DNA from: an uncultured Alphaproteobacteria bacterium
GTDB taxonomy: Bacteria; Pseudomonadota; Alphaproteobacteria; Rhodobacterales; Rhodobacteraceae
NCBI GenBank assembly: GCA_902531755.1
Contig: CACAFI010000014.1
Span: forward strand, 1-42,181
Direction: 5' to 3'
Length of the DNA stretch: 42,181 bases
Shown piece after piece: positions 14,177 through 22,281 of this stretch. The translations under genes were made by a program, and so were the position numbers. Numbering within the stretch: the first letter of the stretch is position 1; every line of letters begins with the position of its first letter. The notes below the pieces were generated by a model. It was not told the DNA's origin and did no database searches. It saw nothing but the letters and a program-made list of their open reading frames with translations.

Positions 14177-14620
14177 TTATGAGTTTTTAAATTCGATTGA
14201 AGGATAGAGATCCGAATTCTCCATGTTCGTTCCCCATCTCCAAGTTGGGTATTTAGGTAGCCATAGAACCGTCTTTTTTCCTAAAGATCCCGAAAAATGA
14301 GCTACTGAGTTAGCTACTGTAATTACCTTTGAACAAATTGAAATCAATTGAAAAACTGAATTAATATCATTTAAGCAATCGCATACATTAAGCAACTGAA
14401 ACCCTTGTTTAGTTATTTGATTGATCTCTTCATCAAATACTGAAGGTTGTAAATTAACTAAAATAACTTTATCAGGATCTAATTCACTATATATCTCCTC
14501 CAGTTTTTTAGAACGCTCAGCACTATAATCTGGATTGAGACTTCGCCAACTTATCCCTATTAAATCCTTGCCAGCAAATTGAGCCAAATTTATCTTTCGT
14601 GAAAGTTTTGTTTGAAACAT
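14177..14620 (-). pseudogene. Remnant of a TPR/GT41-type glycosyltransferase, C-terminal catalytic piece
   Basis: A 147-aa frame matching only the C-terminal nucleotide-sugar-binding half of glycosyltransferases usually preceded by many TPRs. IGISWRSLNP, a short Gln-containing strand VNLQPSVFDEEI, DCLNDINSVFQLI, VITVANSVAHFSGSLGKKT and WLPKYPTWRWG follow in family order. The TPR array, the N-terminal half of the catalytic domain and the usual tail after the YPS segment are missing. No ribosome-binding site precedes ATG 14620, only a run of T. The adjacent 800 bp is non-coding. I read it as a truncated, probably inactive fragment left by rearrangement at the edge of the accessory region. A short functional protein is not excluded. 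Confidence 0.65.
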
Positions 14621-14702
14621 TAAAAAAAAAACAAAGTTTTATTCAATAACATTTTATAGAGCTAATGCGGCTTGCTAATATTCCTTTGACCAAGATACAC
14701 CT

Positions 14703-14766
14703 TAATCCTGAGACCCATTTATTAAAATCAGTTGCTCTCAAAGTAAGAAAGAGCTTTTCTTGGCTA
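14703..14766 (-). repeat. Decayed third copy of the tRNA-Thr 3'-end junction
   Basis: AATCAGTTGCTCT (14726-14738) followed by AGCTTTTCTTGGCTA (14752-14766) matches the junction at 19472-19484 and 19498-19512 exactly, with the same 26-nt start-to-start spacing. The flanking part (ctgagacccat against cccgacccact) is recognisably the tRNA anticodon/T-arm region but degraded. It thus preserves both the tRNA part and the non-tRNA part of the 19.4-kb scar. Confidence 0.65.
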
Positions 14767-15006
14767 ATCCTAGGGTATTTTATCAAATATGTGAGTATGA
14801 CTAGAAACATATGCTCCAATACTTCCACTGAGTAGCTAGGGAATAGGGTCATGATGGAGCAAAAAGATGCAAGGTCTTCATTAAGCTTTTTCTCTTTTAA
14901 AACTTCATGCTAAACTTTCGGAATAAAGTTTTCTAGAAACTAAATCCTCATAGTTACCACTCAGAGAGTGATAGCTATTCTTATAGATTCTAAGAAATAT
15001 AATTTC

Positions 15007-15129
15007 TCATTTGTTTCCTGCTCTGTAGTCATTAGCTTCTTGCCTTGTTACTTGTCTAAAGTACTCGTCTTTCCACATTTCGTCACCAACCTCAATCAGA
15101 AGCTTGTGTAAACCACTACCCTTACTCAT
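15007..15129 (-). CDS. Possible small protein, 40 aa
   Basis: A complete frame starting MSKGSGLHKLLIEVG and ending YRAGNK, with mixed hydrophilic composition and normal-looking codon use for this AT-rich DNA. It lies in an otherwise gene-poor stretch. No good ribosome site is visible upstream, and an overlapping out-of-frame ATG lies 8 nt earlier. It could be a real small gene, or a remnant of a larger mobile-element gene. No family recognised. Confidence 0.3.
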   Translation of the reverse strand: MSKGSGLHKLLIEVGDEMWKDEYFRQVTRQEANDYRAGNK

Positions 15130-15436
15130 TACGCATTTTTCTTATAATCTTGTATTATCAAACAACGAGCCATATCAACAATAAAATTCATGTATTTAAG
15201 TTATTTAGATAAAATAAGATCCAGATCAGTTAGTAGGAGTTGTCCCAGAACTAAGTTGGCTTTAAATTAGTCAATATAAAGCTTTAATAGTTTTCATCAT
15301 TGGAATATCCGTCATATAATTGGCATTGACAATTTGAAGTAATAGACCTTTGTTTTTGGTTAGCGTACTTCACATAGCTATGTTAGGATTTCAATTAAGT
15401 ACCTTCAGTGATTATTAACTTAATGGAGAACGAAAG

Positions 15437-16960
15437 ATGTTGAAGCACCTAGGTTTACTTTCACAGCATGCTGCCAAAAAGTTTGGTGACAAAGATGCTC
15501 TTTTATTTGGCAATCAAAGCTTTTCGTTTCAAGAATTACACGACATGATTGAAAAATTTGGTGCAGGGCTAACATCTTTAGGCGTTAAAGAGAAAGATGT
15601 GGTAACTCTTTATGGATCAAATAGTTGGGAATGGATAGTCAGTTATTTTGCGATCGCTAGGATCGGAGCTGTTATCAATCCTGTAAATACCATGTTGACG
15701 CCTTCTGAAATAATATATGTTGTAAATGATTGCAGAGCACAAACAATAATCTGTTCAGAAGACAAAATTGAAGCTCTTAAAGACATAAGAGAGCATACCC
15801 AAATAAGAAATATCATATCTTTTGGAAAAGAAACCAATCAATGTCAATCATTTAGCTCTATTTTAGCTAGAAATTTGTCGATAAAAAACGAACCAAATGT
15901 TTCACCAAGAGACTTATCTACTATAGCGTATACCTCTGGGACAACAGGTCATCCAAAAGGTGCAATGCAATCACATGAGGCAGTGATACTTAATGGGAGT
16001 ATGACAAGTCAACTTCATATGAGAGGAACCGATGACATCGTTGTTAGTGCCCTACCCTGTCCACATGTCTATGCAAATGTTTTAATGACCGGAATGATGA
16101 TGTTTGGAACAAAACTAATACTACATAGAAATTTTGATGCAGATACAATTTTTCAATCTATAAAAGCTAATAAGGCAACTATTTTTGATGGTGTCCCAAC
16201 CATGTACATGTTTATGCTAAATAGCCCTAATTTAAAAAATTATGATCTATCTAGCTTAAAGCGTTGCTATGTTGGTGGTCAAACAATGCCTGTTGCTACG
16301 ATGACTGCAGTAGAAAAAGAGTTTGGAGTTCCTTTAATAGAACTCTGGGGAATGACTGAAATAGCGGGGCTGGGAGCAACATTTCCACTTTTTGGTCCCA
16401 ATAAACATGGATCAATTGGATGCGCTATCCCCTATTGTGATTTAAAAATTGCAGATGTAGATGATTGTTCAAAACAAATGAATATAGGCGAGGTAGGGGA
16501 ACTTATGGTTAAAGGCCCTATAACTATGATGGGCTATTTTGGCGATGACGAAAAAACTCAGGAGACGTTAGAATCGGATGGGTGGCTGCACTCAGGAGAT
16601 TTGGCTAAGATGGATGAAGACGGTTGTGTATATATAGTAGATAGAAAAAAAGACATGATAATAACAGGAGGGTATAACGTTTATCCTGCAGAAATCGAGA
16701 GGGTTTTAGCTGCTAATCCAAAAGTAGCGCTCGCTGCAGTTGGAAAACAAGGTGACCAGCTAAAAGGAGAGATTGCAAAGGCTTACATTGTCTTAAAAGA
16801 GGGCGAGGAAGCTACAGAGGAAGAGATAATTTCCTATTGTCGTGAAGAGCTAGCAGCCTACAAATGTCCTAGAAAAGTTCAATTTGTAAAGGATGTTCCT
16901 AAGACTAGTACAGGAAAAATCATGAGAAGAGAGCTCAATACTTTAGATAAACTGGGTTAA
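15437..16960 (+). CDS. Long-chain-fatty-acid/acyl-CoA synthetase (AMP-forming)
   Basis: ANL-superfamily ligase of 507 aa with full motif set: TSGTTGHPKGAMQSH (P-loop, about residue 168), ELWGMTE, SGDLAKMDEDG, DRKKDMIITGGYNVYP hinge and STGKIMRREL with the catalytic lysine. It resembles class I acyl-CoA synthetases of fatty-acid or aromatic-acid catabolism. ATG 15437 is preceded by GGAG. It stands alone, flanked by 13-bp direct repeats CCCAGAACTAAGT at 15244-15256 and 16988-17000, and sits inside the region bounded by tRNA-derived scars, so it may have arrived as cargo. Codon use by eye does not differ from its neighbours. Substrate unknown. Confidence 0.92.
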   Translation: MLKHLGLLSQHAAKKFGDKDALLFGNQSFSFQELHDMIEKFGAGLTSLGVKEKDVVTLYGSNSWEWIVSYFAIARIGAVINPVNTMLTPSEIIYVVNDCRAQTIICSEDKIEALKDIREHTQIRNIISFGKETNQCQSFSSILARNLSIKNEPNVSPRDLSTIAYTSGTTGHPKGAMQSHEAVILNGSMTSQLHMRGTDDIVVSALPCPHVYANVLMTGMMMFGTKLILHRNFDADTIFQSIKANKATIFDGVPTMYMFMLNSPNLKNYDLSSLKRCYVGGQTMPVATMTAVEKEFGVPLIELWGMTEIAGLGATFPLFGPNKHGSIGCAIPYCDLKIADVDDCSKQMNIGEVGELMVKGPITMMGYFGDDEKTQETLESDGWLHSGDLAKMDEDGCVYIVDRKKDMIITGGYNVYPAEIERVLAANPKVALAAVGKQGDQLKGEIAKAYIVLKEGEEATEEEIISYCREELAAYKCPRKVQFVKDVPKTSTGKIMRRELNTLDKLG

Positions 16961-16980: not shown

Positions 16981-17000
16981 TGGTGCCCCCAGAACTAAGT
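16981..17000. repeat. Short tRNA-end-like sequence and 13-bp direct repeat after the acyl-CoA synthetase
   Basis: TGGTGCCCCCAGA at 16981-16993 equals the last 13 bases of the tRNA-Thr gene including CCA (minus-strand sense), as at 19429 and 22206. The overlapping CCCAGAACTAAGT (16988-17000) repeats 15244-15256. It begins 21 nt past the gene stop. The rest of 17001-17246 shows nothing I can name. Confidence 0.4.
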
Positions 17001-17246
17001 AGTTCTCAGAATAGCTAATTGAATCAATAACTTATTTGTATGGCTAGGGTTTTGCTCGGTAGTTCAATCGCAATATTTAGAAAAACTATAAATTAATCAT
17101 TAAAAGTAAAATTGTTGAGAGTGTCGATCTTCTAATCAACAACATCCGTTAAAAAATCGGGTAAAAATATATTTTCATGAATAATTTACTAGTTAACATA
17201 TTGATGGGCTTTTCTATTTCAAAATATTGGTTAAGCAAATATCACT

Positions 17247-19118
17247 CTAATTTTCTGGTAATCCCAATGGTTTTAAGGTTTCTACTACGTCAATATAAAA
17301 GCTTTGATCCTTTGATGCTGAATTGTCACTCAAGAATTGTTTCGCTGTTTCGCCTATACCATCCTTTTCTTTTTGAAGCTCAAAAAACCTCTTAGCTTTT
17401 TTTAGATTTCCTTCCTTAACATTTATATAAGCTAACATAATATAAAATGTTCTTTCGGCTCCATCCCAGCTATGTTTCTGTCTGAGTTGTTTCTCCAAAA
17501 AGTTTTTTGCACCCTCAAAATCGCCGCTACGCGTTTTGTTTATAGCATAGTATTTTTTTACCCATGACGAATAATGCGGACCCAAACGGAGGCTCTTTTC
17601 AAAGAGAAGATTACTTTTGTCTGTATTTCCACAAATTGCTTCAACTATAGCAACAAGAGAAATATCTTCTACTGTTCTAGCCAGTGGTCTCATATATGGC
17701 AACCTTTTACATGCGATATCATGCTTACGCATTATTCCCTCTAAAACAGCTACTTGAGCTTGAGGGGAAGCCCAGTCTGGATTTTTTTCCATAGCTTCAA
17801 GGGAAAATTGATATGCCTTGGAAAAATCGTCTTCTGGGTCACTTGATATTCCTAAGTTTATCCTTTGCCAATGGACCCAACCTAAAAAATATTTTAATCT
17901 AGAATTCGAAGGCTCCAACTCAAGAGCCTCTTTGTAGATTTTTTCTGATTTATAGTTGTCTTCTGGATTGTTTCTTTGATAGGCAGCTTGTGCCATTATG
18001 TACTTTCTGTATACTTTAGGATTTCGTGAAATTAAATGGTCGGAGTCAATCGAAAACTTGAGATTAAGTTCTCGCAAAACTGAAACACCAAGGTTGTCCA
18101 TAATTTCAAAAATATCATCTATATTTTTGAATTTAAATAACTCTGTCCACAGGATTTCATTATTCGCTATATCAGTAAGTTCTATAAAAACCCTAAAGTT
18201 ATTTGTAATGCCTTGTATAGACCCGTTTAAAATATATTCAACATTATATAAGTTCTTGATCTCTTCCTTGGGTATCTTGTTTTCTTTTATATATTCTCCA
18301 GTACTTGAGGAGTGGATTTGAAGCTTCTTACTTTGAGAAAGTATATTTATCAAGCTAGACGTAAACCCTTCTCCAACGAAGTTATTCTCTTTTTTTCCTG
18401 TTTGATTTTCAAAAGGCATAACCAGAATAGATGGCATATCTGCTGTCAGACTTTTTTCTGATGATTTTCCTTCACTACCTTTATAAAAATCAGAAAAATA
18501 AAAAGAAAAACAAAGAAAAGAAATAATTAAAGCAGCCGCGATAGCACCAATGAGAGGCATATTGGATTTAGGTTTGGTCTTAAGAGTTCTTTTCTGTGAA
18601 GGATCAAGAAGAATATCAAAAGCATGGAACTCATTCTGCTTAACCTTTTGAACACCAAGGTCATTAAAGGTCATCTTAGTTTTAGGTACGACAAAGTCAT
18701 AGACGCTTTTCGATATAGTAATACCATTAGGTTGGGCGAGAGCTTCTAACCTTGCCGCAATATTAACACCATCACCTATCAGGTTACCTTCCTTCTTAAC
18801 AACATCTCCCATATTGATACCGAGACGGAATTCTAGCTTTACATCTGTTTTGTCTGATTGATTTCTTTTTTTGATTTCGTTCTGGAAATCAACACCACAT
18901 TCAACGGCATTTACAGCACTTGGAAACTCTGCCAATACTGAGTCACCAGCTGTGTTAAAGACTGAGCCTTTGTACTTCTTCAGAAGTTTATTAAGAATTT
19001 TCTCACAAGCATTGTAACTCTTGATAGTAGCATTCTCATCCTTTTCCATATGTTTGGAATAGCCAACTACATCAGCTACAAATATTACAGCTATTTTACG
19101 ATCTATTTCAGAGTTCAT
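17247..19118 (-). CDS. Class III adenylate/guanylate cyclase with TM, FlgO/TolB-like domain and TPR repeats
   Basis: A 623-aa membrane-bound cyclase. Residues 1-175 are the catalytic domain: Asp16 in FVADVVGYS and Asp59 in NTAGDSVLAEF are the metal ligands, with GINMGDVV and GDGVNIAARLE typical of alphaproteobacterial CHD-type cyclases. One transmembrane helix spans about 188-208. Then comes a periplasmic part with a FlgO/TolB-N-like fold (ILVMPFENQTG at 231, EYILNGSIQ) and TPR-like helices to the C-terminus. It makes cAMP (or cGMP) in the cytoplasm, with the outer part probably sensing or scaffolding. It lies between two tRNA-derived scars, transcribed alone. ATG 19118 has GGAAG upstream. 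The cNMP-binding protein at 9.2 kb could be a partner, but nothing here links them. Confidence 0.88.
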   Translation of the reverse strand: MNSEIDRKIAVIFVADVVGYSKHMEKDENATIKSYNACEKILNKLLKKYKGSVFNTAGDSVLAEFPSAVNAVECGVDFQNEIKKRNQSDKTDVKLEFRLGINMGDVVKKEGNLIGDGVNIAARLEALAQPNGITISKSVYDFVVPKTKMTFNDLGVQKVKQNEFHAFDILLDPSQKRTLKTKPKSNMPLIGAIAAALIISFLCFSFYFSDFYKGSEGKSSEKSLTADMPSILVMPFENQTGKKENNFVGEGFTSSLINILSQSKKLQIHSSSTGEYIKENKIPKEEIKNLYNVEYILNGSIQGITNNFRVFIELTDIANNEILWTELFKFKNIDDIFEIMDNLGVSVLRELNLKFSIDSDHLISRNPKVYRKYIMAQAAYQRNNPEDNYKSEKIYKEALELEPSNSRLKYFLGWVHWQRINLGISSDPEDDFSKAYQFSLEAMEKNPDWASPQAQVAVLEGIMRKHDIACKRLPYMRPLARTVEDISLVAIVEAICGNTDKSNLLFEKSLRLGPHYSSWVKKYYAINKTRSGDFEGAKNFLEKQLRQKHSWDGAERTFYIMLAYINVKEGNLKKAKRFFELQKEKDGIGETAKQFLSDNSASKDQSFYIDVVETLKPLGLPEN

Positions 19119-19265
19119 GAGACTTCCTTTCAGTTCACAAGTAAAACTAAATTATTTTGTTATTTTTGTAAAATTAGTTGTTGGTTTTTTGTGGAATTCG
19201 TATACCAGCATCCATCTCAGCTTTGATCTTTATTACTACTTTTTCTTAAATAATCGGTGTTGATT

Positions 19266-19347
19266 GGGTACTCTCAACAACCGAGGGAACTACCTATTCT
19301 CGGTTGTTCAACCTATTCTCGGTAGTTGGCTGACCCCCTTAGTACCC
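19266..19347. repeat. Nested inverted and direct repeats next to the tRNA scar
   Basis: AACAACCGAG (19276-19285) is the perfect complement of CTCGGTTGTT (19299-19308). GGGTACT (19266-19272) pairs with AGTACCC (19341-19347) outside it. ACCTATTCTCGGTTGTT (19292-19308) is repeated as ACCTATTCTCGGTAGTT (19311-19327) with a 19-bp period, and AACTACC (19288-19294) pairs alternatively with GGTAGTT (19321-19327). It could be a structured RNA, or recombinase or regulator binding sites; the sequence alone does not decide. Confidence 0.5.
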
Positions 19348-19388
19348 TACAAAACCTACAAGAACTTCTAAGACCCCTTAAAACCCTT

Positions 19389-19491
19389 GTAGATAAGGGC
19401 AATCAACACCAACATACATTTCAGACAATGGTGCCCCCAGAGAGACTCGAACTCCCGACCCACTGATTACAAATCAGTTGCTCTACCAGCT
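19389..19491 (-). repeat. Direct repeat of the tRNA-Thr 3' end (attachment-site-like scar)
   Basis: Bases 19429-19491 are identical over 63 bp to 22206-22268, the CCA end through the D-arm of the intact tRNA-Thr. The 40 bases beyond (19389-19428) match 22166-22205 with 8 mismatches. The 5' acceptor strand and D-stem are missing and unrelated sequence follows (atgataagc), so this copy cannot make a tRNA. A 3'-end tRNA fragment as direct repeat is the standard footprint of tyrosine-recombinase integration. Confidence 0.8.
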
Positions 19492-19572
19492 ATGATAAGC
19501 TTTTCTTGGCTACTTACGTGTAGTTTAACATAGATTTTTGCATCATTTAAACCATTTTGGTCTACCATTTGG

Positions 19573-19625
19573 TCTACCTCTTCCACGCACGGAACAGTGG
19601 GGCTTTATAGGTAGTATGTTCGTGG
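19573..19625. repeat. Diverged direct repeat, left copy (pairs with 20260-20311)
   Basis: This block starting TCTACC aligns with 20260-20311 at roughly three quarters identity with two single-base gaps, including GCA-GG-ACA and AGTAT-TT-GTGG cores. The two copies bracket the GNAT-like gene. Confidence 0.45.
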
Positions 19626-19667
19626 GCTGCAAGTTACAATGTAGTAATAATTGACCAGAACCATAAT

Positions 19668-20114
19668 CTATATAAAGTACTCGAAGTTAAGTGAATCTGA
19701 ATTAACACTTAATTCTTTAGCTCCATTTTTAAGATGAAAATTTCTTGCCATATTGTTCTTTGGACTCAGCGTAACGAAGCGCTTAATTTCAGGTCTATTC
19801 TTTTGAAGCCAATCTACAGCATTAAACAACATCTTACGACCACATCCTTTATCGTAACTCCAAATTGTGTAAAATATTGCTATCGATTTTTCAATGTTTG
19901 TCTTGTCCGAGGAGAACTCATCTAATTCAATTTCATTTGTCGGAACTTCGTTAGAAATTGCGATGCAGACTGCCGCCTTACAATTATGATTATCAATTAA
20001 AGCTAATCCCAGTCTATTGTTGGATAACCTAAATTCTTCTGTTAAGTGAGGCCTTACAGGGTCATCATTAAACAAATGGGAATAATACCCAGATTCAATT
20101 AGTATTGTTTCCAT
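19668..20114 (-). CDS. GNAT-like N-acetyltransferase, 148 aa
   Basis: A small protein with a likely GNAT fold. YDKGCGRKMLFNAV (about 87-100) matches the acetyl-CoA pyrophosphate loop xxxGxG plus following helix, and LSPKNNMARNFHLKNGAKE (about 116-134) matches the motif B region, where a side chain grips CoA before the last strand pair. The N-terminal part is less typical. Acceptor unknown. ATG 20114 has only a weak upstream site (GAGAA). It is a lone gene in the tRNA-bounded accessory segment, bracketed by diverged direct repeats, which suggests mobile cargo. Confidence 0.65.
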   Translation of the reverse strand: METILIESGYYSHLFNDDPVRPHLTEEFRLSNNRLGLALIDNHNCKAAVCIAISNEVPTNEIELDEFSSDKTNIEKSIAIFYTIWSYDKGCGRKMLFNAVDWLQKNRPEIKRFVTLSPKNNMARNFHLKNGAKELSVNSDSLNFEYFI

Positions 20115-20468
20115 AAAATTCTCACAAGAAATAGTATTAAAAGTGAACTTAATTATTTGAATATGTCCCTTTTGTCAATATTTTAGAAAATCTTTTTTCT
20201 CCAATGCATAATAAGAACTAATTGATAAAACATTTTCTATTGAGCATGCTTAATTTTTGTCTACCCTTCCCAAGCATGGGACATAGAGGGTGTACAGGAA
20301 GTATCTTGTGGAGGTGTGCTACAGATAGGATTTCTCCTACTAGTAAAGTTTCAAGGCTACAATATTCATACTTATGTCACTATCTGAAAACTTTTTCAAA
20401 AATTGACCACAATATTTAATTCTGTTTAAATAATTCATATATTAAACTTAATAAGGGAGGAACATTAA
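20115..20468. other. Intergenic stretch with second copy of diverged repeat
   Basis: These 354 bases carry divergent promoters for the GNAT-like gene and the 102-aa gene, plus the repeat copy at 20260-20311. A 65-codon frame at 20222-20419 is low-complexity and lacks a ribosome site, so I do not call it. Nothing else is recognisable. Confidence 0.5.
20260..20311. repeat. Diverged direct repeat, right copy
   Basis: Partner of 19573-19625 in the same orientation; see that entry for the alignment. Confidence 0.45.
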
Positions 20469-20777
20469 ATGTTGCAGGTCTCAAAATGGGAAATGAAAAG
20501 TGGTGCTAGTAGAGATGACTTTGGTATGGCAGCATTGAATTTTTGTAAAAATGCTAAATCTAATTCAGGTGTCAGCGATGCAAAGTTTTATTGGCAAAAT
20601 CCTAATGTAGTGGCAATTATAGTAGAGCATGATGGCTCATGGGGACCGAACGTAGAGCCCTCAGGTCAAACAATGAAGGCATTTTTCGACTTAGCTGACC
20701 TGTCTACCTGCACAATGGATGAACCATGGATTGAGGCTGGTTTGGGTCACAAGAGAACCCAAAAGATTTCAAGCTAA
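20469..20777 (+). CDS. Small protein of unknown function, possible dimeric alpha/beta-barrel
   Basis: A 102-aa protein with a strong ribosome site (AGGGAGG) 10 nt before ATG 20469, so expression is likely. The pattern of strand, helix with Cys and Lys (AALNFCKNAK), strand (SDAKFYWQNPN) and strand (VVAIIVEHDG) recalls dimeric alpha/beta-barrel (ABM-like) proteins. No catalytic signature is visible. Cys26 and Cys80 are the only cysteines. It lies inside the tRNA-bounded accessory segment. Function not assignable. Confidence 0.65.
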   Translation: MLQVSKWEMKSGASRDDFGMAALNFCKNAKSNSGVSDAKFYWQNPNVVAIIVEHDGSWGPNVEPSGQTMKAFFDLADLSTCTMDEPWIEAGLGHKRTQKISS

Positions 20778-20860
20778 AATTGGTGGTAGCATTTTTTTTA
20801 TTTGTGAAATATACAAAATGTCGCATTTGATAATCTGGAAACTTCTGCTACCTTATTGTC

Positions 20861-21049
20861 ATGTGTATAATGAATAGTTTAATGTTTCTTGGCATACTGG
20901 GATATCTTGGCTTCAAAGGGGCTAAGTGGATAGTTAAGACTGTTTACCAAAACAGGGCATCAATCTCTAACAATATCTATCAAGCCTACAATCTACCTGA
21001 GACGTTGTATCAGCGAATAAGGGTAGATGGAAAAAGAGACTACAGATAA
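20861..21049 (+). CDS. Small membrane protein, 62 aa (tentative)
   Basis: The frame MCIMNSLMFLGILGYLGFKGAK gives one N-terminal hydrophobic helix followed by a basic, Tyr- and Arg-rich tail (ASISNNIYQAYNLPETLYQR). A second in-frame ATG lies 9 nt downstream. No clear ribosome-binding site is visible. It converges with the sigma region 4 gene 18 nt away. It may be a genuine small accessory gene; no family recognised. Confidence 0.4.
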   Translation: MCIMNSLMFLGILGYLGFKGAKWIVKTVYQNRASISNNIYQAYNLPETLYQRIRVDGKRDYR

Positions 21050-21067
21050 GATTTTCTAAGACCCAAG

Positions 21068-21355
21068 TTAGGTTTTAGAACCATGACTAGGCGATTTCTC
21101 TAGGCCAACGTCAATAACAAGGTGTCTGAGTTCCAGCATGTCAGGATTGTTACGTAGTTTTTTTAATGCTCGCACCTCAATCTGACGGACACGCTCATAA
21201 GATATGTTGAAGAGCTTTGCGATTTGATGAAGTGTCCAACTCTCTTGGTTCGGCATATCAATTCCAAAACGCATCTTTAAAATCAACAGTTCACGTTCCG
21301 TCATTTTGTCTGACTGATTCAAATTATTAACAGCCTTTGTAATTCTTCTTAACAC
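21068..21355 (-). CDS. Stand-alone sigma-70 region 4-like DNA-binding protein
   Basis: Up to 95 aa consisting almost only of sigma-70 region 4. TERELLILKMRFGI (4.1), then WTLHQIAKLFNISYERVRQI and EVRALKKLRNN (4.2 helix-turn-helix; VRQIE-RALKKLR is the RpoD-type recognition helix). Regions 1-3 are absent, so it cannot be a complete sigma factor. GTG 21355 overlaps the end of the SEL1 gene by 29 nt, suggesting translational coupling; ATG 21304 (78 aa) is an alternative that begins exactly at region 4. It could be a phage/island transcription regulator touching -35 elements or the RNA polymerase beta flap, or a remnant of an RpoD-like gene. It lies in the tRNA-Thr-bounded segment. Confidence 0.72.
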   Translation of the reverse strand: MLRRITKAVNNLNQSDKMTERELLILKMRFGIDMPNQESWTLHQIAKLFNISYERVRQIEVRALKKLRNNPDMLELRHLVIDVGLEKSPSHGSKT

Positions 21356-22037
21356 ATTCTCTTGCTAAATCTTGTGCCTTCTCTATTTGGGATGGGGTCA
21401 TGCGTTTAGCTACGACGTCTCTGTTTTTACCTCCGTTCTCATCCCCGTTAGAAAAACCTATGTTAAACCACATATGAGCATAGACTATATCCTCTATTAA
21501 ACCACCTTGCCCTGCATAATACATCGTCCCCAGATAAGTCTGCGCAGAGGCATATCCCTGTTCAGCTGCTAGAGTATACCATTTTAATGCTTCTTTATGG
21601 TCTTGGATAGTTCCTTTCCCTTCATAAAACATGAATCCTGAATTATATTGTGAAAGCACATTTCCTTGCTCCGCAGCAAGAAGAAACCATTTCAATGCCT
21701 TCTTGTAATCTTGAATTACACCTTTACCTTCGTAATGTTTCATTGCTAGATGATACTGAGCTGTAGAATATCCTTGCTTTGCGGAGAGAGTGTACCACTT
21801 GACTGCCTCACTAAAGTCTTGAGCAGTGCCTTTACCCTGAGTAGTCATCCACCCTACATTATACTGTGCTGCAGCATTTCCTTGCTCGGCTAATTTTTTA
21901 AACCCCTCAAAAGCGATGGTGTAGTCACCTTTTTTGTATGCATTAAAAGCCCTTTTAAAGTCATCACCCCAACTCAAACTCAAGCTCAAAAGAAAAACTG
22001 AGAAGGTACTTACTATATGTTTCAGAAGATGTTTCAT
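21327..22037 (-). CDS. Secreted SEL1-like (TPR) repeat protein
   Basis: A 236-aa protein beginning MKHLLKHIVSTFSVFLLSLS, a Sec signal peptide with cleavage probably before DDFKRAF. Four to five SEL1 repeats of 36 residues follow (pattern A-YK-GD, AAEQGNA-AQYN-G-MY-EGKG), last motif YAGQGGLIEDIVYAHMWFNIG, ending in a Cys-containing tail. I start at ATG 22037; a TTG 18 nt upstream is also in frame. SEL1 proteins are scaffolds for protein contacts, here in the periplasm. Its 3' end overlaps the sigma region 4 gene. It is the gene closest to the intact tRNA-Thr in the accessory segment. Confidence 0.85.
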   Translation of the reverse strand: MKHLLKHIVSTFSVFLLSLSLSWGDDFKRAFNAYKKGDYTIAFEGFKKLAEQGNAAAQYNVGWMTTQGKGTAQDFSEAVKWYTLSAKQGYSTAQYHLAMKHYEGKGVIQDYKKALKWFLLAAEQGNVLSQYNSGFMFYEGKGTIQDHKEALKWYTLAAEQGYASAQTYLGTMYYAGQGGLIEDIVYAHMWFNIGFSNGDENGGKNRDVVAKRMTPSQIEKAQDLARECVKKNYKGC

Positions 22038-22109
22038 CCCAAAAATATTACCCAAAGTTTTAGATTTTGCAACAGCAGGATGTTGGGGGTAATATAGAGA
22101 CGCTTTATT

Positions 22110-22136
22110 ATTGAGGAGATAATCTCCTCAATTTTT
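22110..22136 (+). terminator. Strong hairpin plus T-run between SEL1 gene and tRNA-Thr
   Basis: ATTGAGGAGA (22110-22119) and TCTCCTCAAT (22123-22132) form a perfect 10-bp stem with a 3-nt loop, followed by TTTTT on the plus strand. Oddly, the neighbouring genes run on the minus strand, where only AATAATAA follows the stem. It may block plus-strand read-through or be a relic of an inserted element. Confidence 0.6.
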
Positions 22137-22165
22137 CTATCATTTCTGAGGTTGGAACAAACCTC

Positions 22166-22268
22166 GTAGACAAGGGCAATCAACAAAAACCTACATTTCG
22201 GATTCTGGTGCCCCCAGAGAGACTCGAACTCCCGACCCACTGATTACAAATCAGTTGCTCTACCAGCT
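22166..22268 (-). repeat. Direct repeat at the tRNA-Thr 3' end (intact side)
   Basis: Partner of 19389-19491. It spans the 3' 63 bases of the tRNA gene and 40 bases downstream of it, without indels between the copies (95 of 103 positions identical by eye). Confidence 0.8.
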
Positions 22269-22281
22269 GAGCTATAGAGGC
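22206..22281 (-). tRNA. tRNA-Thr (anticodon UGU)
   Basis: The minus-strand cloverleaf starts GCCTCTA at 22281. It has the D-stem GCTC/GAGC, the anticodon arm ACTGA-TTTGTAA-TCAGT giving anticodon TGT, and the T-arm GGGAG-TTCGAGT-CTCTC. The acceptor 3' strand TGGGGGC is followed by A and an encoded CCA. The acceptor stem pairs fully, allowing two G-U pairs. It is 76 nt with CCA. A 3' partial copy lies at 19429-19491. thrS lies 2.3 kb away on the other strand. Confidence 0.97.

What the first reader, a model, noticed from the sequence alone, without database searches (positions are those of the whole stretch)
19389..22281. tRNA-Thr(UGU) 3' end duplicated as a 103-bp direct repeat bracketing 2.7 kb of cargo
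The 63 bases from the CCA end to the D-arm are identical in both copies, and 40 more bases downstream match at 32 of 40. Only the right copy is a full tRNA. Between them lie a SEL1 protein, a sigma region 4 protein, two small proteins and a GNAT protein. This is the footprint of a tyrosine-recombinase element, but the integrase is gone.
Basis: partly seen in the sequence, partly recalled or inferred. Interest (0 to 1): 0.6.

Follow-up and report, generated by a model that had tools for sequence, protein, structure and literature searches.

The report
tRNA-anchored stack of swappable gene cassettes
In a little-known ocean bacterium, a transfer-RNA gene has served as a docking site for small DNA units that lack their own integrase, and the genes inside such units are swapped between related bacteria at a short shared joint, somewhat like the gene cassettes of integrons.

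Summary
The repeat is real: 63 identical bases of the tRNA-Thr(UGU) 3' part plus a 47-base flank matching at 37/47. It is the footprint of site-specific integration. Relative G012 has the empty site, and 5 of 9 relatives whose tRNA-Thr locus was read carry a tyrosine integrase (DUF6538 + Phage_integrase) beside this tRNA. Its outer boundary is a 13-bp tRNA end, where G012 joins flank to tRNA. A decayed third copy lies at 14711-14802.

In the genus, modules inside such units are bounded by an end repeat: of 399 shared-module ends, 181 lie within 30 bp of it (shifted-repeat mean 25, maximum 47). G007 and G002 differ by exactly 248 bp between two copies of GTAGTATGTTCTTGG. The window's GNAT gene is such a module (94-95% identical in G005 and G014).

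tRNA-targeted cassettes are known ('additive' genomic islands). Module swapping at a shared joint that is neither tRNA nor attC appears to be a new variant. The enzyme is unidentified; slippage or homologous recombination is not excluded.

The parts
22206..22281 (-). tRNA-Thr(UGU), intact; its 3' 63 nt is the core of the integration site
   Evidence: ARAGORN, Rfam 68.5 bits; synteny with relatives ends at its 3' end
22159..22205 (.). tRNA-proximal end of the inner unit (type X flank)
   Evidence: 37/47 identical to 19382-19428; 93.6% identical to the flank of a core in G009
19429..19491 (.). distal core of the inner unit: 63-nt copy of the tRNA-Thr 3' part
   Evidence: 63/63 identity
19492..19554 (.). 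conserved element end ('tail') behind the core, GCTTTTCTTGGCTACT...
   Evidence: aligned with 10 further copies in relatives
19555..19578 (.). arm-like direct repeat pair TTTTGGTCTACC / ATTTGGTCTACC; a like pair overlaps the integrase start codon in relatives
   Evidence: binding by the integrase is inferred
19563..19637 (+). end repeat (ER) 1; joint core GTAGTATGTTCGTGG at 19611-19625
   Evidence: nhmmer 50 bits (this copy is in the training set), R1 model 59 bits
19626..20297 (-). GNAT module; ORF 19668-20114 minus (148 aa)
   Evidence: 94-95% identical in G005 and G014, bounded by ER on both sides in all three
20250..20324 (+). ER 2; degenerate joint core 20298-20312 (10 of 15 letters, counted by eye)
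   Evidence: nhmmer 54 bits (in the training set)
20313..21049 (+). second module: ORF 20469-20777 (102 aa, no family) and ORF 20867-21049 (60 aa)
   Evidence: 89-91% identical in G020, G019 and G004, starting at an ER
21068..22055 (-). sigma region 4 protein (21068-21355, 95 aa) and SEL1-repeat protein (21327-22055)
   Evidence: the same pair in a tRNA-Lys element of G010
19382..19428 (.). type X flank, proximal end of the outer unit
17247..19118 (-). adenylate/guanylate cyclase-TPR gene, cargo of the outer unit
   Evidence: absent from the empty site
16981..16993 (.). outer boundary: 13 nt TGGTGCCCCCAGA of the tRNA 3' end (followed by ACTAAG), where G012 continues into the tRNA
   Evidence: the same core followed by ACTAAG in G009
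14711..14802 (.). decayed core + tail, older integration footprint
   Evidence: nhmmer 32.4 bits, E 8e-9 in the searched set

Best explanation
The window holds a stack of two small integrated units downstream of tRNA-Thr(UGU). Each was inserted by site-specific recombination into the 3' end of the tRNA gene, as tyrosine recombinases do. On this reading each newcomer restores the tRNA and pushes the older unit outward with a partial tRNA copy at its far end. Shown: empty site, cores, different occupants in relatives, and integrases of one family at this very site in relatives. Inferred: an integrase of the DUF6538-Phage_integrase family inserted these integrase-less units, acting in trans or before it was lost. 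Inside such units the cargo is modular: modules of about 0.25-2.6 kb are joined at a conserved end repeat and differ between arrays and genomes by gain, loss and exchange there. That module boundaries fall at the repeat is shown; the enzyme is not known.
For: 63/63 core identity. Empty site in G012 and three different end types behind the same acyl-CoA synthetase gene in G000, G010 and G004. Integrase beside tRNA-Thr in G003, G004, G009, G018 and G020, i.e. 5 of the 9 relatives whose tRNA-Thr locus was read; of the other four, G012 is empty, G008 and G010 gave no integrase match, and the G002 contig has only 1.6 kb on that side. Core copies per locus, tRNA included: three in G020, four in G018. 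Family-wide habit: 35 of 37 loci given to ARAGORN (of 66 found) have a tRNA, 33 with it 65-113 nt upstream of the integrase match on the same strand. Modules: 181 of 399 shared-segment ends within 30 bp of an end repeat against 25 +/- 6.4, maximum 47 in 1000 shifted sets. Identity switches inside the repeat. Exact 248-bp presence/absence between near-identical flanks. 18 arrangements, the 248-bp case among them, in which one genome has module(s) between two repeats where another joins the same outer flanks at one.
Against: No DUF6538 integrase was found in the window's own genome, which is 64.5% complete; its other phage-type integrases (C15, C61) were not tied to this site. No excised circle or reads were available. 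Breakpoints are not all at one place in the repeat, and one lies before the hairpin. Repeats in one array can point in opposite directions (38 toward, 21 away from the tRNA in 15 loci with a tRNA).
Confidence: 0.82

Rival explanations
1. Ordinary local duplication of the tRNA region followed by gene insertion; no mobile element.
For: A 103-110 bp direct repeat beside a tRNA could arise by duplication.
Against: Empty site in G012 and different contents or end types at the same site in G000, G004, G008, G009, G010, G018 and G020; integrases at the site; the same element ends recur with other cargo.
Confidence: 0.03
2. One 2.7-kb element that once had its own integrase and lost it, with the rest of the window ordinary chromosome.
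For: Integrase decay is common in the genus: of 16 DUF6538 matches, 7 have open frames of 377-396 aa and 9 are shorter, some with stops, some perhaps cut by contig ends.
Against: The outer boundary at 16981 makes the island 5.2 kb with two units. The combination X end + 13-nt core of the outer unit recurs in G009 around 1.3 kb with one ORF over 200 aa and no integrase; the integrase remnant there lies beyond the 13-nt core, in the next unit. A 1.1-kb unit in G018 has one ORF of 60 aa or more, a methyltransferase.
Confidence: 0.25
3. Module exchange at the end repeat is only homologous recombination or replication slippage between repeated DNA, not site-specific recombination.
For: Breakpoints scatter over roughly 12-20 bp, within the most conserved stretch; a deletion between two 15-bp copies can occur by slippage; no dedicated recombinase was found to track the repeat.
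Against: In the exact indel the two repeats share only 15 continuous identical bases, short for RecA (length limit recalled); modules recur at many sites and near different tRNAs with the same ends; insertion as well as deletion is needed.
Confidence: 0.45
4. Rolling-circle (IS91/ISCR-like) one-ended transposition: end repeat = hairpin terminus, GTTC/CTTG target and origin end.
For: The joint core holds GTTC and CTTG, targets recalled for IS91-type elements; some copies fold into a hairpin.
Against: Y1 transposase in 0 of 22 genus genomes, with 5 of 14 control genomes positive; Y2 in 0 of 22, although no control rang in that search, so it does not show absence; mean folding z only -0.37. The genomes are drafts.
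Confidence: 0.05

Closest known systems
Additive flexible genomic islands (Alteromonas, PMC4119200; Ca. Actinomarinales, PMC7771536; Methylophilaceae fGI-2, PMC10872708)
   Same: A tRNA gene is the target for gene cassettes, with tRNA fragments repeated at or before the cassettes; number and content vary between strains (passages read).
   Different: The passages seen describe repeats of the tRNA fragment itself; here modules also join at a second, non-tRNA repeat shared by arrays near different tRNAs.
CIMEs / integrase-less integrative elements stacked by accretion (recalled; no paper read)
   Same: Element ends and core sites without own recombinase, stacked at a tRNA; a unit with integrase is next to the tRNA in some relatives.
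   Different: No conjugation or mobilisation gene was recognised in the window's units; units down to 1.1 kb with one gene.
Tycheposons (Hackl et al. 2023 recalled, not held; described second-hand in PMC10872708)
   Same: Cargo-carrying units at tRNA genes in marine bacteria, with tyrosine recombinases.
   Different: Described as 4-200 kb with a recombinase; here 2.4 and 2.8 kb without one; the relatives' integrase is of the DUF6538 family.
Integrons
   Same: Arrays of small modules joined at a shared site, present or absent one by one, first position next to a fixed end.
   Different: No IntI over cut-off in 22 genomes, no attC-like fold shown, gene directions mixed, anchored at tRNA genes.

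Membership tests
tRNA-targeting tyrosine-recombinase integration (genomic island) | direct repeat of the tRNA 3' end at both boundaries | tested here: met
   63-nt identity and 13-nt outer copy
tRNA-targeting tyrosine-recombinase integration (genomic island) | empty site in a relative | tested here: met
   G012
tRNA-targeting tyrosine-recombinase integration (genomic island) | own integrase | tested here: not met
   none on the window contig; cognate ones in relatives
Additive flexible genomic island | variable number of cassettes at a conserved tRNA locus across strains | tested here: met
   G012 none; G010 3.3 kb; G000 5.2 kb; G020 about 16 kb
CIME / trans-mobilised unit | att-type ends without a recombinase gene | tested here: met
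CIME / trans-mobilised unit | excision or transfer by a helper integrase | not testable with these tools
   needs reads or bench assay
Tycheposon | 4-200 kb with a tyrosine recombinase (as described in PMC10872708) | tested here: not met
   2.4 and 2.8 kb units (5.2 kb together), no recombinase
Integron | IntI-type integrase | tested here: not met
   TIGR02249 over its cut-off (265 bits) in 0 of 22 genus genomes; sub-cut-off matches up to 77.8 bits in 20 of 22, mostly in 310-328-aa ORFs that I take for XerC/XerD
Integron | attC sites with a conserved fold | tested here: inconclusive
   109 repeats, mean z -0.37 against -0.10 for flanks
Integron | cassette genes nearly all in one direction | tested here: not met
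   largest ORF in 59 intervals: 21 with, 35 against the repeat, 3 none (counted from the list; some modules appear more than once)
Prophage or phage satellite | phage structural, packaging or replication genes | tested here: not met
   nine proteins scanned against PHROGs; cargo hits are sigma factors and families of unknown function

The most novel reading that the evidence does not exclude
This genus of marine alphaproteobacteria has its own cassette-exchange system that works like an integron but is not built from IntI and attC. Gene modules carry a conserved half-site, join at a 15-bp core (GTAGTATGTTCTTGG) and move one by one between arrays anchored at tRNA genes (Thr, Leu, perhaps Ser), catalysed by a recombinase that also targets, or works together with one that targets, tRNA 3' ends (candidate: the DUF6538 integrases acting in trans).
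Probability: 0.35. Interest if true: 0.8.

Novelty: new variant of a known kind. Interest (0 to 1): 0.6.

Why it matters
How small-genome ocean bacteria keep exchanging single genes is an open question. A stack of integrase-less units at a tRNA, with modules traded at a defined joint within one genus (the joint repeat is in 20 of 22 genomes searched), gives a concrete and testable route. If the joint is a recombination site, it would be a second way, besides integrons, to build and reshuffle single-gene cassette arrays.

Tried and rejected
Second tRNA gene at the left copy: rejected; the Rfam score (37 bits) comes mainly from the shared 63 nt with a gapped D-arm, and similar non-tRNA bases recur in the element ends of relatives.

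Conserved fold of the end repeat (attC-like or RNA): RNAalifold found no pair and folding energies barely differ from shuffles; not claimed.

Phage carriage of the repeat: the 29-mer is absent from IMG/VR; the 15-mer hits 23 viral contigs, of which the best extended match to the repeat model is 15.9 bits over 21 positions; no support.

Other recombinases for the joint: serine recombinases are present in 13 of 22 genomes, not pursued; Y1 transposases not found, Y2 not found but without a positive control; integron integrase not found over its cut-off.

Origin of the 1.1 kb at about 14190-15350 with the decayed core: in the loci held, only the core part matched; left unexplained. Hackl et al. 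2023 is not held. DUF6538 appears in no held paper. Searches for tycheposons, an integron-like or a tRNA cassette system with such a joint listed nothing that I recognised as it; only titles and abstract starts were seen there, apart from passages of PMC10872708, PMC7771536 and PMC4119200.
Full report
WHAT WAS CHECKED. The repeat exists as described: 19382-19491 and 22159-22268, 110 nt, 91%, with 63/63 identity over the tRNA part and 37/47 over the flank. Exact repeats in shuffled DNA of the same stretch reach 15 nt at most (200 mononucleotide shuffles). The only tRNA called is tRNA-Thr(UGU) at 22206-22281, minus strand.

WHERE IT SITS. The window is contig C14 of a draft genome of 1.52 Mb in 85 contigs, 64.5% complete. 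Twenty-one relatives of the same genus are held. Five of them (G003, G004, G009, G018, G020) could be matched, by equal contig numbers and lengths, to public records of uncultured marine Alphaproteobacteria isolates such as AG-892-M03. The stretch from the tRNA rightwards is syntenic in 11 of the 21, at about 76-79% in most. In 9 of them the match includes the tRNA and starts at window 22202-22206, the tRNA 3' end. What lies to its left differs from genome to genome.

EMPTY SITE AND TRUE EXTENT. In G012 the acyl-CoA synthetase gene (window 15437-16960) runs directly into the tRNA. The two alignments to the window overlap by 13 bases, TGGTGCCCCCAGA, which in the window stand at 16981-16993. So the island is 16981-22205, not 19389-22281. 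It has two units: inner 19429-22205 and outer 16981-19428, the latter with a cyclase-TPR gene. Behind the same gene, G010 has an end with a 17-nt core, G004 an eroded 63-nt core, G000 the 13-nt core, and G005 no recognisable core within the stretch shown. The 13-nt core followed by ACTAAG recurs in G009 (L036, about 15938-15950), about 1.3 kb from a type X flank, the same pair of ends as the window's outer unit. A decayed core + tail lies further out in the window at 14711-14802 (32.4 bits).

INTEGRASE. Five of the nine relatives whose tRNA-Thr locus was read carry a 371-392-aa integrase beside it (G003, G004, G009, G018, G020). Of the other four, G012 is empty, G008 and G010 gave no match with these integrases, and G002 has only 1.6 kb on that side. 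DUF6538 + Phage_integrase was shown by hmmscan for G003 and G020 and DUF6538 at the places of the other three by genome search. In the five-member alignment R231, H327, R330, W353 and Y362 are invariant; that these are the catalytic residues is recalled. Of 66 related loci in public genomes I gave 37 to ARAGORN: 35 have a tRNA, and in 33 it lies 65-113 nt upstream of the integrase match on the same strand, for Thr, Leu, Gly, Phe and Arg tRNAs. A pair of TTTGGTCTACC-like repeats overlaps the integrase start codon and also stands at the far end of the units; arm-type binding is inferred. The window's genome shows no DUF6538 match, but about a third of it is missing.

STACKS. Core + tail copies outside the tRNA number three in G018, two in G020 and one each in G008, G009, G005, G019, G004 and the window (these 11 trained the model, so they match by construction). 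One G018 unit is 1.1 kb with a single ORF of 60 aa or more, a TylF-like methyltransferase. An end with one and the same tail is found with a 17-nt Thr core and, in G009, with a Leu(GAG) core. In G010 an 8.85-kb element at tRNA-Lys (54-bp exact repeat, integrase 414 aa) carries the same sigma-region-4 and SEL1 gene pair as the window (75-89% by stretch), so this pair too seems to be mobile cargo.

MODULES AND THE END REPEAT. Behind the tails stands a 75-90 bp end repeat, which also occurs alone between cargo genes. A sequence model of it finds 1-16 copies per genome in 20 of 22 genus genomes and none in two; among 111 relatives, searched with stricter filters, only one weak match lies outside the genus. 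In the 41 sequences searched (window and 40 loci of the genus; training copies included) a second model gave 135 hits, in stretches that hold tRNA-Thr, three Leu tRNAs or two Ser tRNAs and in contigs without a tRNA; for tRNA-Ser(GCT) the repeats lie 4-10 kb from the tRNA. Of 399 distinct ends of segments shared between genomes, 181 lie within 30 bp of a repeat; 1000 sets with shifted repeats gave 25 +/- 6.4, maximum 47 (ends are not fully independent). Fifty-nine pairs of neighbouring same-strand repeats lie less than 2.6 kb apart (my cut), median 1081 bp.

WHERE THE JOINT IS. Among 109 aligned repeats, 249 pairs with only the left flank in common stay similar up to about column 51, and 60 pairs with only the right flank in common become similar from about columns 52-68; the stretch between is GTATGTTCTTGG (pairs are not independent). 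G007 and G002 are nearly identical on both sides of one joint, but G007 has 248 bp more, exactly between two copies of GTAGTATGTTCTTGG, where G002 has one copy. Counting this case, there are 18 arrangements among 144 repeats in which one genome has module(s) between two repeats where another joins the same outer flanks at one (some share a repeat). The window is one: tail | GNAT module | second module, against tail | second module in G020. The GNAT module is 94-95% identical in G005 and G014, while two backbone stretches between the window and G005 are 74 and 86% identical.

HOW IT MOST LIKELY WORKS. Units with tRNA-type cores enter at the tRNA 3' end and stack outward; the integrase is supplied by a neighbour unit or was lost (inferred). 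Within units, modules are exchanged at the end repeat. Whether a site-specific recombinase acts there is open: the short shared core and recurrence at many sites argue for it; scattered breakpoints, mixed directions of genes and of repeats, no conserved fold and no enzyme found to track the repeat (DUF6538 in 9 of 22 genomes while the repeat is in 20) argue against it or leave it open. Integron integrase is not found (0 of 22 over cut-off), nor are Y1 transposases.

COMPARISON. tRNA genes as targets for cassettes, with tRNA-fragment repeats, are described for Alteromonas, Ca. Actinomarinales and Methylophilaceae (passages read). The finding as given is therefore a new member of that kind. The second joint shared by arrays near different tRNAs is, as far as searches show, not described in the held papers, hence 'new variant'.

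Noticed in passing
window 17247-19118: The N-terminal cyclase domain of this cyclase-TPR gene has paralogues in many genus genomes, often several per genome (about 64-93% at DNA level): a large family of cyclases in a small-genome marine genus, some of them cargo of these islands.
   Followed up: no
window 20811-21049: A 239-bp stretch with a 60-aa ORF recurs at about 80-87% in about a dozen genus genomes, a small repeated module of unknown function.
   Followed up: no
window 21068-22055; L039 8795-9650: A stand-alone sigma region 4 protein (94-95 aa) overlaps the end of a SEL1 protein gene; the pair is kept together in two different islands.
   Followed up: partly
L039 3918-12826 (G010:C1): 8.85-kb element at tRNA-Lys(TTT): 54-bp exact repeat, 414-aa integrase with a different N-terminus at the far end, TGTCTACT repeats at both ends.
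   Followed up: partly
window 14190-15350: 1.1 kb with a decayed element end between two genes that lie next to each other in G004, G005, G010 and G012; some relatives show no acyl-CoA synthetase gene there and have an element end instead.
   Followed up: partly
window 19432-19500: The partial tRNA copy passes Rfam's tRNA gathering score (37.2 against 29 bits); automatic annotation may call a false second tRNA-Thr in such islands.
   Followed up: yes
L036 12106-14240 (G009): An NgoFVII-like restriction endonuclease and a C5 cytosine methylase as cargo of the tRNA-Thr island.
   Followed up: no
L038 8795-9014 (G005); L036 16007-16210 (G009): Integrase N-terminal remnants, the one in G005 fused directly to an end repeat, suggesting that ends may swap through the shared GGTCTACC motif.
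   Followed up: partly
loci L084-L109, L129 and others: DUF6538-type integrase relatives just downstream of Gly, Leu, Phe, Arg and Thr tRNAs in SAR116 and other alphaproteobacteria, in many with a weak match to the GGTCTACC pair near the start codon, but no full end repeat.
   Followed up: partly
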